DNA of 10,546 nucleotides, taken from NCBI GenBank assembly GCA_002384315.1, contig DGBL01000082.1, positions 1 to 10,546 of the forward strand. Direction: 5' to 3'. The notes below the pieces were generated by a model. It did no database searches. It was not told the DNA's origin and worked only from the letters and a program-made list of their open reading frames with translations. A program made the translations under genes and the position numbers. The DNA is from Micrococcaceae bacterium UBA4005 (GTDB lineage Bacteria > Actinomycetota > Actinomycetes > Actinomycetales > Micrococcaceae). Of the stretch, positions 1,541-6,460 are shown one piece after another; position 1 is the stretch's first letter, and every line of letters begins with the position of its first letter.

Positions 1541-3202
1541 CTAGCTCCCGACGGCGGCGGACGTCGGCACACCCGCGTCCACCGGGTGGAACCTGATGCG
1601 GATACCGGGCGGCAATTGTGCGGCCCGGTCCAGATCCTCCGGAATCACCACGCCGATCACCGGATACCCTCCTGTCACCGGGTGGTCCGCCAGAAACAGG
1701 ACGGGGCACCCCGACGGCGGCACCTGCAACGCACCGCGTACCGTGCCTTCGCTGGGCAGTTCCCCCGTGATCCGGCGGACCAGCGGTTCGCCATCCAGCC
1801 GCACGCCGATGCGGCTGGACTGGGGGGTCACGAGCCAGGACTGCGCGCACAAACGTTCGAACCCGTCCACCGAGAACCAGTCGTCGCGCGGCCCGCGCAT
1901 CACCCGGAACTGAATCTCCGCAGCGTCCGCGGCTGCGGGAACATCCGCGAGAATTTCGGGCGCCCCAACCACCGAGGCGGGTGCTGGCGTTCCGACGGCC
2001 AGGAGTTGCCCAGCTAGCAACGGCGCCGGACCAAGCCCGGATAACGCATCGGTGGATCGGCTGTCCATGACCGGTTCCGCCACGAACCCGCCCCGCACGG
2101 CCGTATAACTGCGCAACCCACGTTCCGGCGAACCAAGGGAAAGCCGCTGACCGGCGCGCAGCAGGAACGGCGCACCAAGCTGCGCCGCGCGCGTTCCTCC
2201 GTTGTCGTCCATGATGGTCGCCGACAGATGTGCGCCGGTGACAGCCAGCACCTGGTCCGACTTTGCCTGGAGGTCTAGGCCGCCATGGAGGGTTTCGATC
2301 ACCGCTTCGCCTGCCGGATTGCCCACGAGGCGATTCGCCTGCCGGAAGGCTGCACGGTCCAGCGCGCCGGATTCGGCTACCCCTAACGCCGCAAAACCTG
2401 GCCTGCCCAGATCCTGGAACGTACTCTGCAGTCCGGCCCGGACGATCAGCAGCCCGCCACCGTCATTATCGCCGTCGTTATCGCTTTCGCGGCCGCCGTC
2501 GTTGCCACTGGATTCCGATGCCGGCGCCGGTGCCGACGTGGAACCCTGCGTGCGGCTCACTGGGAGCCGCGGGCGGACGGGGCGGAACCGGACCTCGTCG
2601 CCCGGAGTGACCAGTGCTGGGTTTTCGCGCGAGCTGTCCCACATCAGCGTTTCAGTTCGTCCGATCAGCTGCCAGCCACCAGGCGATTCACGCGGATAGA
2701 CGGCAGAATAGCCTCCCGCGAGCGCCACAGCGCCTGCTGGCACGAGCGTTCGTGGCGATTCCCGCCGCGGAACGGTCAGCTCCGGGGGCCCGGCCAGGTA
2801 GGCGAATCCTGGCGCGAAGCCGCCGAATGCCGCCGTCCAGTGTGCCGAGGAGTGGCGCGAAATCACCGACTCCTCACTCATGCCGGTCAGCTGCGCAACC
2901 TCAGCAAGATCCGCCCCGTCGTACACGGTGTCGATTGCTACCGTACGGCTCGTGCGCTCCGGTTCGAGCGAGAGGTCCATGGACGGGATCCGCCGGGCGA
3001 TGCGCTGTGCGCAGGCGCTGTTTGTCGCCGTGACCAGCACCGTTTTGGCAGCGGCGACGACGTCGACCTGTCCAGGACTTGGTTCGGCCCGCAACTGGGC
3101 CTGGAGGCTGAGGACTTGGCGCAACCCGGGCAGCTCCACCAGCACCGCGCATGGCCCGACCGGCAGAATACGCAAAGCGGGCGGGCTCATCTTGCTAGGC
3201 AT
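1541..3202 (-). CDS. pxpBC: 5-oxoprolinase subunits B and C fused (KipI-KipA, biotin-dependent carboxyltransferase-like)
   Basis: This 553-residue fusion joins the two proteins that work with PxpA in ATP-dependent opening of 5-oxoproline to glutamate in the cytoplasm. Residues about 10-210 are the PxpB/KipI domain, with the family signatures FGGFAPGFAYLAG (126-138), PRRESPRTLVPAG (145-157) and GGYSAVYPRESPGGW (163-177). Residues about 251-540 are the PxpC/KipA domain, with TFQDLGRPGF (261-270), ESGALDRAAFRQANRLVGN (277-295), VTGAH (321-325) and, near the end, ALQVPPSGCPVL and GGYPVIGVV (511-519). A low-complexity linker at about 212-250, rich in Ser, Asp, Asn and Gly, joins them. I chose the ATG at 3202, one base past the pxpA stop. 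An in-frame ATG at 3190 (residue 5) is equally possible, with AGGATG in front of it. The tight junction implies one operon and translational coupling with pxpA. The open frame continues upstream, but that part overlaps pxpA and is not coding. Confidence 0.9.
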   Translation of the reverse strand: MPSKMSPPALRILPVGPCAVLVELPGLRQVLSLQAQLRAEPSPGQVDVVAAAKTVLVTATNSACAQRIARRIPSMDLSLEPERTSRTVAIDTVYDGADLAEVAQLTGMSEESVISRHSSAHWTAAFGGFAPGFAYLAGPPELTVPRRESPRTLVPAGAVALAGGYSAVYPRESPGGWQLIGRTETLMWDSSRENPALVTPGDEVRFRPVRPRLPVSRTQGSTSAPAPASESSGNDGGRESDNDGDNDGGGLLIVRAGLQSTFQDLGRPGFAALGVAESGALDRAAFRQANRLVGNPAGEAVIETLHGGLDLQAKSDQVLAVTGAHLSATIMDDNGGTRAAQLGAPFLLRAGQRLSLGSPERGLRSYTAVRGGFVAEPVMDSRSTDALSGLGPAPLLAGQLLAVGTPAPASVVGAPEILADVPAAADAAEIQFRVMRGPRDDWFSVDGFERLCAQSWLVTPQSSRIGVRLDGEPLVRRITGELPSEGTVRGALQVPPSGCPVLFLADHPVTGGYPVIGVVIPEDLDRAAQLPPGIRIRFHPVDAGVPTSAAVGS

Positions 3203-3203
3203 C

Positions 3204-3962
3204 CTAGGCGAACCCTGCGACCGGAATCCCTGCGGCCGCGAGTGCGCGGCGGACGGCCTCTGCCATGGCGACCGCTCCAGGCGTGTCTCCATGGACGCAG
3301 ATGCTTTCCGCACCGACGTCCACCAGGGTACCGTCAATGGCCTTGATCTTTCCCTCACCGGCAATGCGCAATACATGCTCGACGACGGCTGCTGGCTCCT
3401 GGAGCACCGCTCCGGGTTGGGTGCGCGGAACCAGGGTCCCGTCCGGCAGGTACGCCCGGTCAGCGAATGCTTCCACCACTGTCCGCAGGTCAGCAGCGCG
3501 CGCCGCGCGCTGGATTTCAGACCCGGGCAGGACCAGCAGCGGCAGGGCCGGATCGACATCGCGGACCGCCTCGACCACGGCCTGCGCTTGACCGGCATGG
3601 TGAACAATCGCGTTATATAGCGCCCCATGTGGTTTGATATACGCCACGGAGGTTCCAGCAGAAACAGCCAGCGCCTGGAGTGCGCCCACCTGATACACGA
3701 TGTCGTTGGTCAGCTCCGGCAACGCCATATCCAGAAAGCGGCGGCCGAACCCCGCCAAGTCGCGATAGCCGGGGTGGGCTCCCACCGTGACTCCGGCTCC
3801 GGCCGCGGTTTTGCAGGTCTGCCGGATGCCCGTTGGGTCCCCGGCATGGAATCCGCACGCAACATTGACGCTCGATACTGACCGGATGATCTCGGCATCC
3901 GATCCGAAGGACCACTGCCCGAAGGATTCGCCGACGTCGCTGTTCAGGTCGATGCTCTGCAC
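3204..3962 (-). CDS. pxpA: 5-oxoprolinase subunit A, LamB/YcsF family
   Basis: PxpA is the LamB/YcsF subunit of prokaryotic 5-oxoprolinase, which removes the damage product 5-oxoproline (pyroglutamate) by converting it to glutamate with ATP. The protein reads [15 protein letters not shown] at the N-terminus, the family hallmark, followed by [23 protein letters not shown] and [12 protein letters not shown], all expected for this metal-dependent TIM-barrel-like fold. I chose the GTG at 3962. It gives 252 residues, the usual family length, and GGAGGA sits 4 bases ahead of it. An ATG at 4118 would add 52 residues with no family similarity that would run through the intergenic region. Downstream lies pxpBC; upstream and divergent lies a MarR-family regulator, a likely controller of this operon by position. 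Confidence 0.93.
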
Positions 3963-4056
3963 TGTGTCCTCCGATGTGATCCACCTATTCCCCAAGCATG
4001 GAGCATTTCCCCCGGATTGTTCAACATTCCACTCCAGGTTCCCGCAGAGCTCAAAA

Positions 4057-4096
4057 GTAAGCAGGCTTGGTAAGCAGCGTGGTGGGTCGGTAGAGT
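4057..4096 (+). promoter_or_regulatory. Candidate marR promoter with tandem GTAAGCAG operator
   Basis: A TTGGTA (4067-4072) and a TAGAGT (4091-4096) with an 18-base spacer make a fair sigma70-type promoter, predicting a start near 4103 and a leader of about 45 bases before the marR ATG. Two exact copies of GTAAGCAG lie at 4057-4064 and 4070-4077, 13 bp apart, the second overlapping the -35 box. Between them are short mirrored elements (AAGC/GCTT). This is a reasonable place for MarR autorepression. The 185-bp region (3963-4147) also has to hold the divergent pxpA promoter, which I could not assign. Confidence 0.4.
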
Positions 4097-4147
4097 GGGT
4101 GATGAGAACGCAATGCACTATCCATCGCCTTCGGGGGAGGAACCGTC

Positions 4148-4596: not shown

Positions 4597-5970
4597 CTAA
4601 AATCCGCCGTCGCTGGCCATGTTGTTGAAGCGTGAATAATGCCCCTGGAAACCTACGACCAGCGTTTTCGTCGGCCCGTTTCGATGCTTGGCAACGATCA
4701 CGTCCGCCTCTCCGGCACGCGGAGATTCCTTATCGTAGACATCATCGCGGTGCAGCAGGATGACCATGTCCGCGTCTTGCTCGATCGACCCTGATTCACG
4801 CAGATCCGAAACCTGTGGGCGCTTGTCGGTGCGCTGCTCCGACCCACGGTTCAGCTGCGAGAGAGCCACGACTGGAACATTCAGTTCCTTCGCCAACAGC
4901 TTGAGCGCGCGGGAGAATTCTGAAACCTCCTGCTGGCGCGACTCCACCCGCTTACCGGATGACATGAGCTGGAGGTAGTCAAGCACCACCAGTTTGAGGT
5001 CGTGGCGCTGCTTCAGGCGACGGCACTTTGCCCGAATTTCCATCAGCGACATGTTCGGGCTGTCATCGATAAACAGTGGGGCGTCATTCATCCGCCCCAT
5101 CGTTGTGGCGATCTTGCTCCACTGCTCGTCCTTAATAGTGCCCTTGCGCAGATCCTGCAGGCCGATGGTTGCCTCGGCGGAGAGCAATCGCATGGCGATC
5201 TCGTTGCGCCCCATCTCCAGGGAGAAGAAGACGGTGGTCAGATTGTGCTTAATAGCAGCCGACCTAGCCCAGTCAAGCGCAAACGTGGACTTTCCCATGG
5301 CCGGCCGGGCCGCGATCACAATCATCTGCCCGCCGTGCAGGCCCTGGGTAAGCTCGTCGAATTCATAGAAGCCCGTCGGAACACCGCTCATGCCCTCACC
5401 GCGATGGCCTGCGGACTCAATCTCATCAACCGTGCCCTCGATGATGTCCTTCAGCGGCACATAATCCTCGGCTGTGCGCCGTTCGGCCACCGCATAGACC
5501 TCCGCCTGCGCTGCGTTAACCAGATCATCTACCTCGCCGTCGTTGGAATACCCCAACTGCACGATCTTGGTGCCAGCATCCACCAGCCGGCGCAGCACCG
5601 CACGCTCGCGAACGATCTCAGCGTAGAAACCAGCATTCGCCGCCGTCGGAACAGACTGGATCAACGTATGCAAATAGGCGGGCCCGCCCACACGTGAAAT
5701 CTCGCCGCGCTTGGTCAATTCATCCGAAACAGTCACGGCATCGGCTGGTTCCCCCCGCCCGTAGAGGTCCAGAATTGCCTCGTAGATGCTCTCGTGGGAG
5801 GGACGGTAAAAATCGACCCCACGAAGGACTTCCACGCAGTCCGCGATGGCGTCCTTGGAAAGCATCATCCCGCCGAGCACCGACTGTTCGGCTACGAGAT
5901 CCTGCGGTGGAGTCCGCGCGAACTCCGGCACGCCCGTGTCACGGGAGGAATCCGCATGCGTCAATGACAC
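4597..5970 (-). CDS. dnaB: Replicative DNA helicase DnaB
   Basis: DnaB is the hexameric 5'-3' helicase that unwinds the chromosome at the replication fork. The 457-residue protein has the N-terminal helical domain (about 23-125, starting PPQDLVAEQSVLGGMM), a linker, and the RecA-like motor from about residue 190. The Walker A is ARPAMGKST (221-229), the Walker B strand LVVLDYLQLM (327-336), the QLNRGSEQR and DLRESGSIEQDAD segments follow (372-401), and KHRNGPT (428-434) holds the arginine finger. The length is normal and there is no intein, unlike some mycobacterial DnaB proteins. The GTG start has AGGG 7 bases upstream. It lies downstream of the rpsF-rplI block but behind a strong terminator-like palindrome, so it is probably transcribed from its own promoter in the 515-bp spacer, which carries DnaA boxes. 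Confidence 0.97.
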   Translation of the reverse strand: MSLTHADSSRDTGVPEFARTPPQDLVAEQSVLGGMMLSKDAIADCVEVLRGVDFYRPSHESIYEAILDLYGRGEPADAVTVSDELTKRGEISRVGGPAYLHTLIQSVPTAANAGFYAEIVRERAVLRRLVDAGTKIVQLGYSNDGEVDDLVNAAQAEVYAVAERRTAEDYVPLKDIIEGTVDEIESAGHRGEGMSGVPTGFYEFDELTQGLHGGQMIVIAARPAMGKSTFALDWARSAAIKHNLTTVFFSLEMGRNEIAMRLLSAEATIGLQDLRKGTIKDEQWSKIATTMGRMNDAPLFIDDSPNMSLMEIRAKCRRLKQRHDLKLVVLDYLQLMSSGKRVESRQQEVSEFSRALKLLAKELNVPVVALSQLNRGSEQRTDKRPQVSDLRESGSIEQDADMVILLHRDDVYDKESPRAGEADVIVAKHRNGPTKTLVVGFQGHYSRFNNMASDGGF

Positions 5971-6019: not shown

Positions 6020-6186
6020 GTGAGTCTGGTTTCGTACGCGCTTGCAACCCGTTACACGGCTCCGGCGGCGGCTGGGAGCCGCGATGTGCCGGTGTAGTAG
6101 CAGTAGCACGCTCCGCCGACACTTTGGTGGACTTCCGTCACGGTAGTCCCCTTCCGCGCACGCACCAAGCTCACTATTTTTCCACC

Positions 6187-6344
6187 TGTGGATAACTTGT
6201 GAATTACGCGGGCGTGTCTTGTGCACAGGATGTGGAGATCTTTGTGGATAAAAAGATTTAGAAAGCTCTAAATAGCCTCTGACTAGGTACAACATATTAA
6301 ACGGTGTGTGGAGGAAAAGAACTTACCGTCAACCTTCATCCACA
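6187..6344. promoter_or_regulatory. DnaA-box cluster with AT-rich stretch, upstream of dnaB
   Basis: Two perfect DnaA boxes TTATCCACA lie on the minus strand at 6187-6195 and 6243-6251. One-mismatch boxes are TTGTGCACA at 6219-6227 (+, against the actinobacterial TTGTCCACA) and TCATCCACA at 6336-6344 (+). Two-mismatch candidates are at 6231-6239 and 6307-6315 (both minus) and 6178-6186 (+). The boxes at 6219, 6231 and 6243 start exactly 12 bp apart. An AT-rich run follows at about 6248-6300. This is the architecture of a DnaA-binding locus or origin. No dnaA, dnaN or rpmH, the usual actinobacterial oriC neighbours, is in the window, so it may instead control dnaB or titrate DnaA. The rest of the spacer (6020-6186) holds a small inverted repeat CGGCTCC/GGAGCCG (6057-6063, 6075-6081) and no gene that I can support. 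Confidence 0.65.
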
Positions 6345-6428
6345 AGTCGTATGTTGACAAACTGCGTAAAGGTGCTCGCTTTTGAGCCTGCCTAGCACGT
6401 CTCCCGTAGAAAGCCGGTCCCACGCAAG

Positions 6429-6460
6429 GGAGGGGCCCCGCCGTACGGCGGGGCCCCTCC
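6429..6460 (-). terminator. Perfect 32-bp GC-rich palindrome ending the rpsF-rplI operon
   Basis: Two 16-base arms (6429-6444 and 6445-6460) are exact complements centred on GTAC, giving an RNA stem of about 14 bp with very high GC content. It lies 25 bp past the rplI stop. No T tract follows on either strand, which is common for actinobacterial terminators. It should isolate dnaB from the ribosomal operon. Confidence 0.75.

What the first reader, a model, noticed from the sequence alone, without database searches (positions are those of the whole stretch)
6187..6344. DnaA-box cluster and AT-rich stretch upstream of dnaB, away from dnaA/dnaN
Seen directly: two perfect TTATCCACA boxes, two one-mismatch boxes and at least three weaker ones in about 165 bp. 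Three starts lie exactly 12 bp apart (6219, 6231, 6243), and an AT-rich run follows at about 6248-6300. Known: actinobacterial oriC normally lies between dnaA and dnaN, neither of which is here. Inference: the spacer is either a DnaA-controlled dnaB promoter, a DnaA-titrating or reactivating locus analogous to datA/DARS, or a secondary or relocated origin. Coupling helicase supply to DnaA would be a neat control loop.
Basis: partly seen in the sequence, partly recalled or inferred. Interest (0 to 1): 0.75.

Follow-up and report, generated by a model that had tools for sequence, protein, structure and literature searches.

The report
DnaA-controlled promoter of helicase gene dnaB
The spacer in front of the DNA-helicase gene carries a cluster of binding sites for the replication starter protein DnaA, and in many related bacteria these sites sit at fixed distances before a promoter, so the cell probably ties its supply of helicase to the protein that starts DNA replication.

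Summary
In detail: the rplI-dnaB spacer holds two perfect and three one-mismatch DnaA boxes in 6187-6360, far above chance, and the most AT-rich stretch of the window. The cluster is conserved across the class: 217 boxes in 70 dnaB upstream regions from 62 other genera, against 9.0 in shuffles and 17 for the reversed pattern. The last box core sits 13-15, 24-26, 35-37 or 46-48 bp before the -35 in 25 of the 27 sampled genera (of 62) with a promoter match; random promoter placement gives 3.0 and never 25 in 5000 trials. Published work reports DnaA binding upstream of dnaB in M. tuberculosis and M. smegmatis, with lower dnaB expression in a mutant that binds it less (PMC7738170, passages). Best reading: a DnaA-regulated, probably DnaA-activated, dnaB promoter, with titration near oriC as a possible second role. 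A second origin is unlikely, since close relatives keep box clusters at dnaA-dnaN.

The parts
6187..6195 (-). DnaA box, perfect TTATCCACA; promoter-proximal box, 18 bp before the -35 element
   Evidence: spacing read output
6219..6227 (+). DnaA box TTGTGCACA (1 mismatch); part of an 11-bp block CTGTGCACAAG (dnaB orientation) invariant in the 9 aligned Arthrobacter-group sequences
6231..6239 (-). weak DnaA box ATCTCCACA (2 mismatches), middle of the 12-bp series
   Evidence: by eye
6243..6251 (-). DnaA box, perfect TTATCCACA
   Evidence: aligned TCCACA kept in 9 of 9 sequences
6336..6344 (+). DnaA box TCATCCACA (1 mismatch)
   Evidence: aligned TGTGGATG in 8 of 9
6352..6360 (-).
6248..6300 (.). 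AT-rich run (72% AT)
6163..6168 (-). predicted -35 element of the dnaB promoter, TTGGTG
6140..6145 (-). predicted -10 element of the dnaB promoter, TACCGT, 17 bp after the -35
6430..6459. 30-bp perfect palindrome after rplI, possible terminator hairpin separating dnaB from the rpsF-ssb-rpsR-rplI operon (inferred; no T run, not listed by the terminator scan)
   Evidence: by eye; sub-threshold Rfam matches on it
4597..5970 (-). dnaB, replicative DNA helicase (457 aa), the regulated gene
   Evidence: PF03796, PF00772
6486..6935 (-). rplI, ribosomal protein L9, upstream neighbour

Best explanation
The spacer is the control region of dnaB. DnaA binds the box array upstream of a vegetative-sigma promoter (-35 TTGGTG, 17 bp, -10 TACCGT). 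From the promoter-proximal box it most likely activates transcription by contacting RNA polymerase, so helicase supply follows the level or nucleotide state of DnaA. Shown here: boxes, promoter-like elements, their conservation and their fixed spacing. Shown by others in mycobacteria: DnaA binding upstream of dnaB, and reduced dnaB expression in a DnaA mutant that binds there less. Inferred: binding in this organism, activation rather than repression, and contact with RNA polymerase.
For: Class sample: 217 boxes in 70 upstream regions against 9.0 (shuffles) and 17 (reversed pattern); 57 of 70 have at least 2 boxes with shuffle p <= 0.01. First set: 86 boxes in 27 representatives against 3.4 and 6. 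Promoter TTGNNN-N16-18-TANNNT in 65 of 81 regions against 8.2% of shuffles; TTGNNN-N17-18-TANCGT in 49 of 81 against 0.5%. Distance from the last upstream box core to the -35 is 13-15 or 24-26 bp in 63 of 65 (mostly Streptomyces and Microbacteriaceae). One genome per genus: 19 of 27 at those distances, 25 of 27 when 35-37 and 46-48 are added. Placing the promoter at random downstream of the first core gives means of 1.6 and 3.0, jittering it by up to 15 bp gives 3.9 and 5.8, and 0 of 5000 trials reach the observed counts in either. The reversed control core gives 0 of 27, but only 6 of 27 regions hold such a core there. M. tuberculosis DnaA pull-down and M. smegmatis ChIP-seq find the site upstream of dnaB; DnaA I282T binds it less and under-expresses dnaB (PMC7738170, passages). 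dnaB (SCO3911) is in the HrdB modelled regulon of S. coelicolor (PMC6344877, passage). Caulobacter dnaB is in the DnaA regulon (PMC8203912, passage).
Against: No binding or expression data for this genus. Only 27 of 62 sampled genera show the promoter pattern (about 5 expected by chance at the 8.2% rate). The closest relative, A. echini, lacks the strict pattern; a relaxed one is seen by eye (TTCGGT-17-TACGGT, sequence). 3 of 70 regions have no box, 4 of 27 have none and 3 have one. The distance windows were drawn, though tested on a separate sample. Box cores also fall inside the promoter in 2 of 65 and 1 of 27 regions, and downstream of it in 10 of 65 and 3 of 27, which would suit repression there. 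Some weak boxes may not bind. The sign of regulation rests on one mycobacterial mutant.
Confidence: 0.78

Rival explanations
1. The cluster is mainly a DnaA reservoir near oriC (datA-like or Streptomyces-cluster-like) that limits re-initiation after it is duplicated; its position before dnaB matters little.
For: Densest-200-bp box count equals or exceeds that seen at dnaA-dnaN in 8 of 17 genomes (only 1,086 bp seen on that side); in A. echini it lies about 53 kb from dnaA on the same contig; S. coelicolor has DnaA-box clusters near oriC that repress untimely initiation (PMC5742627 and PMC4585315, passages).
Against: A reservoir needs no fixed spacing to a promoter, yet the spacing is kept across genera.
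Confidence: 0.3
2. DnaA binds the cluster but represses dnaB rather than activating it.
For: DnaA represses some promoters (established knowledge); the closest boxes end only about 5-7 bp before the -35 in Streptomyces and Microbacteriaceae (sequences); cores lie inside the promoter in 2 of 65 and 1 of 27 regions and downstream in 10 of 65 and 3 of 27.
Against: In most promoter-bearing regions no core overlaps the promoter (63 of 65 and 26 of 27); the mycobacterial mutant with less binding has less dnaB expression.
Confidence: 0.2
3. A secondary or relocated replication origin.
For: Box cluster with 12-bp series next to an AT-rich run; five of eight relatives have their most AT-rich 53 bp at a similar place, -290 to -357.
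Against: Clusters remain at dnaA-dnaN in close relatives (in the window's own MAG dnaA was not found); maximum AT of a 53-bp stretch is 0.57 in A. echini and 0.55-0.68 in the eight relatives; the array is spaced to a promoter.
Confidence: 0.03
4. A DARS-like site that reloads DnaA with ATP.
For: Box cluster outside oriC conserved in position.
Against: No evidence for or against was obtained; DARS function could not be tested.
Confidence: 0.04

Closest known systems
DnaA site upstream of dnaB in M. tuberculosis / M. smegmatis (PMC7738170, passages)
   Same: Same gene and same side; DnaA binding seen by genomic pull-down (M. tuberculosis) and ChIP-seq (M. smegmatis).
   Different: No binding data here; box and promoter geometry was not in the passages read, and the mycobacterial sequence itself was not compared.
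dnaB in the Caulobacter DnaA regulon (Hottes 2005, as cited in PMC8203912, passage)
   Same: Predicted DnaA boxes upstream of dnaB and response to dnaA delay.
   Different: Distant phylum; architecture not compared here.
S. coelicolor DnaA-box clusters (Smulczyk-Krawczyszyn 2006; paper not held, known here only as cited in PMC5742627 and PMC4585315)
   Same: DnaA-box cluster outside oriC but near it.
   Different: Whether one of those clusters is the dnaB spacer could not be checked.
datA / DARS of E. coli (recalled, and PMC5742627 passage)
   Same: DnaA boxes outside oriC.
   Different: Here the cluster sits in a gene's promoter region and is spaced to it; IHF and Fis sites not examined.

Membership tests
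DnaA-regulated dnaB promoter | DnaA boxes upstream of dnaB, above chance | tested here: met
DnaA-regulated dnaB promoter | promoter for dnaB adjoining the boxes, conserved in relation to them | tested here: met
   met in the window; pattern found in 27 of 62 genera, spacing kept in 25 of those 27
DnaA-regulated dnaB promoter | DnaA bound there in the cell | not testable with these tools
   published for mycobacteria
DnaA-regulated dnaB promoter | dnaB transcription responds to DnaA | not testable with these tools
   mycobacterial I282T mutant and Caulobacter regulon, passages
chromosomal origin oriC | location at dnaA/dnaN | tested here: not met
   flanked by rplI and dnaB; close relatives keep clusters at dnaA-dnaN
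chromosomal origin oriC | AT-rich unwinding element conserved with the boxes | tested here: inconclusive
   72% AT here, 55-68% maximum in eight relatives, at a similar place in five; triplet-run test uninformative
datA / titration locus | high DnaA-box density near oriC | tested here: met
   (8 of 17 at least as dense as the seen dnaA-dnaN stretch); about 53 kb from dnaA in A. echini; distance unknown in the window's own genome
datA / titration locus | loss raises initiation frequency | not testable with these tools
   needs deletion and marker-frequency analysis
DARS | promotes ADP-to-ATP exchange on DnaA | not testable with these tools
   biochemical assay needed

The most novel reading that the evidence does not exclude
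Actinomycetes share an ancestral control loop in which DnaA is a helical-phase-dependent activator of the replicative helicase gene. The dnaB array and a second cluster 3' of crgA (the likely counterpart of the mycobacterial Rv0010c-Rv0011c site) form a conserved oriC-flanking set of DnaA sites that couples helicase supply and DnaA activity to replication.
Probability: 0.4. Interest if true: 0.72.

Novelty: new member of a known kind. Interest (0 to 1): 0.5.

Why it matters
It would turn a binding site reported in mycobacteria into a class-wide regulatory element, and give a simple test of whether DnaA switches on the gene for its own partner helicase through a geometry-dependent contact with RNA polymerase. 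It also offers conserved sites for studying how actinobacteria limit initiation.

Tried and rejected
Plasmid near-match search of the spacer: no match. Rfam on the spacer: seven matches, all below the gathering score and on the GC-rich palindrome region; no leader RNA. The generic sigma-70 scan proposed a different site (6203-6176, TTCACA-16-AAAAAT); set aside because it overlaps the proximal box, whereas TTGGTG-N17-TACCGT is the one repeated in relatives. DnaA-trio-like triplets: none in the spacer, but none in the A. echini oriC either, so not used as evidence. Whether the Streptomyces clusters named D78, H24 or H69 (names recalled) include the dnaB spacer: nothing seen in the library gave it. 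Literature searches for DnaA boxes or binding before dnaB. Of what I saw, only PMC7738170 (passages) reports binding upstream of dnaB in actinobacteria; a cyanobacterial paper listed was not opened. Absence from print beyond this open-licence library is not claimed.

Dropped or unused rows: of 118 class genomes searched (own genome included), 117 matched, and the match list was cut short. 70 upstream regions were fetched (62 genera plus 8 further genomes of the same genera). Left out: the own genus and four genera (no match, no listed N-terminal match, or no upstream sequence). In one search, 27 of 81 regions (one per genus or unnamed MAG, chosen by me) were used. crgA was not found in 1 of 17 genomes. 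One dnaA handle (L047) was not held. The first crgA scan had wrong orientation and stopped with an error; it was redone.

Full report
What is there. The window lies in an incomplete Arthrobacter-like MAG (1.92 Mb, 241 contigs, 68.8% complete). Its dnaB is 96% identical to that of A. echini and 93% to that of A. koreensis in the best segment. The gene order on the minus strand is rpsF-ssb-rpsR-rplI-dnaB (rpsF and rpsR assigned by eye). The 515-bp rplI-dnaB spacer holds two perfect and three one-mismatch DnaA boxes. Shuffles of the spacer average 0.0095 perfect boxes and 0.18 with at most one mismatch; 0 of 2000 reach the observed 2 or 5. A 30-bp GC-rich palindrome after rplI (6430-6459, by eye) may end the ribosomal-protein operon, so dnaB is expected to have its own promoter (inference).

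Conservation. In 80 dnaB loci from genome contigs plus the window, boxes recur upstream of dnaB. One representative per genus or unnamed MAG (27 of 81) gives 86 boxes in 500 bp against 3.4 in shuffles and 6 for the reversed pattern; 20 of 27 have at least 2 boxes at p <= 0.01, 3 have one box and 4 have none. A class sample drawn by the tool (118 genomes, 117 with a match) was cut to 70 upstream regions (62 genera). It gives 217 boxes against 9.0 and 17; 57 of 70 are significant in the same sense, and 3 of 70 have none.

A promoter spaced to the boxes. Alignment of the window with eight Arthrobacter-group loci shows the boxes among the best-kept blocks, with CTGTGCACAAG invariant, followed by a -10-like element, mostly TA-N-CGT. 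Searching TTGNNN-N16-18-TANNNT finds a match in 65 of 81 regions, against 8.2% of shuffles; the tighter TTGNNN-N17-18-TANCGT occurs in 49 of 81 against 0.5%. In the window it is TTGGTG (6168-6163) - 17 bp - TACCGT (6145-6140). The distance from the start of the last upstream TCCACA/TGTGGA core to the -35 is 13-15 or 24-26 bp in 63 of 65 cases (24 in the window); the two exceptions are 45 and 65. Because Streptomyces and Microbacteriaceae dominate that set, the test was repeated with one genome per genus in the class sample. Of 62 genera, 27 have a promoter match; 19 are at those distances and 25 are within 13-15, 24-26, 35-37 or 46-48; the exceptions are 92 and 147. A reversed control core gives 0 of 27, but it occurs upstream of the promoter in only 6 of 27 regions, so a second control was run. 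Random promoter placement gives means of 1.6 (two windows) and 3.0 (four), jitter of up to 15 bp gives 3.9 and 5.8, and 0 of 5000 trials reach 19 or 25. Steps of about one helical turn are what an activator on a fixed DNA face would need. The 11-13-bp repeat of boxes within arrays could produce the same steps when a proximal box is lost. Cores also lie inside the promoter in 2 of 65 and 1 of 27 regions, and downstream of it in 10 of 65 and 3 of 27.

Mechanism. Published data supply binding. In M. tuberculosis, DnaA pull-down of genomic DNA gave five highly enriched regions including the one upstream of dnaB, and M. [quoted passage not shown] S. coelicolor dnaB is in the modelled regulon of the principal sigma factor HrdB (PMC6344877, passage). 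Together these favour activation of a vegetative promoter by DnaA. Binding and activation in this organism are inferred.

Alternatives. The densest 200 bp of the dnaB spacer has at least as many boxes as the seen dnaA-dnaN stretch in 8 of 17 genomes and fewer in 9, with only 1,086 bp on that side in hand. The locus is about 53 kb from dnaA in A. echini. A titration role is therefore possible alongside regulation; two papers state that S. coelicolor clusters restrain untimely initiation (passages). A second origin is unlikely, since dnaA-dnaN clusters persist in close relatives. The most AT-rich 53 bp lies at a similar place in five of eight relatives but reaches only 57-68% there, so the AT run is not decisive.

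A second site. In the same MAG another pair of perfect boxes lies just 3' of crgA, next to a rhomboid gene and a cyclophilin gene like ppiA (L112; ppiA by eye). A. echini has three perfect boxes there, about 15 kb from dnaA. M. tuberculosis DnaA binds Rv0010c-Rv0011c (Rv0011c is crgA, recalled), for which the authors saw no obvious correspondence in other species. In 400 bp 3' of crgA, 17 loci hold 32 boxes against 1.9 in shuffles and 5 reversed; 9 of 17 have at least two, 1 has one and 7 have none. Conservation there is patchier than at dnaB.

Verdict.

Noticed in passing
L112:3097-3118 (own genome contig C214); A. echini G005:C15:773218-773282: Second DnaA-box cluster, 3' of crgA; likely counterpart of the mycobacterial Rv0010c-Rv0011c DnaA site. 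9 of 17 crgA loci have at least two boxes in 400 bp, 7 have none.
   Followed up: partly
L111:4316-4376 (own genome contig C140, near its end): Pair of perfect TTATCCACA boxes 52 bp apart, about 50 bp upstream of a long ORF that looks like an HNH/DUF222-type protein (by eye); conservation unknown.
   Followed up: no
window 6256-6273: 7-bp dyad ATTTAGA-AAGC-TCTAAAT inside the AT-rich run (by eye); not visible in the aligned relatives, possibly a lineage-specific operator.
   Followed up: no
alignment, between the outer and inner boxes: Non-box block GTTT...GTCAGA kept in many Arthrobacter-group spacers between DnaA boxes; no known factor assigned.
   Followed up: no
window 1541-4118: 5-oxoprolinase-like set: LamB/YcsF gene (3204-4118) and a fused CT_C_D/CT_A_B carboxyltransferase ORF (1541-3628) overlapping on the same strand.
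   Followed up: no
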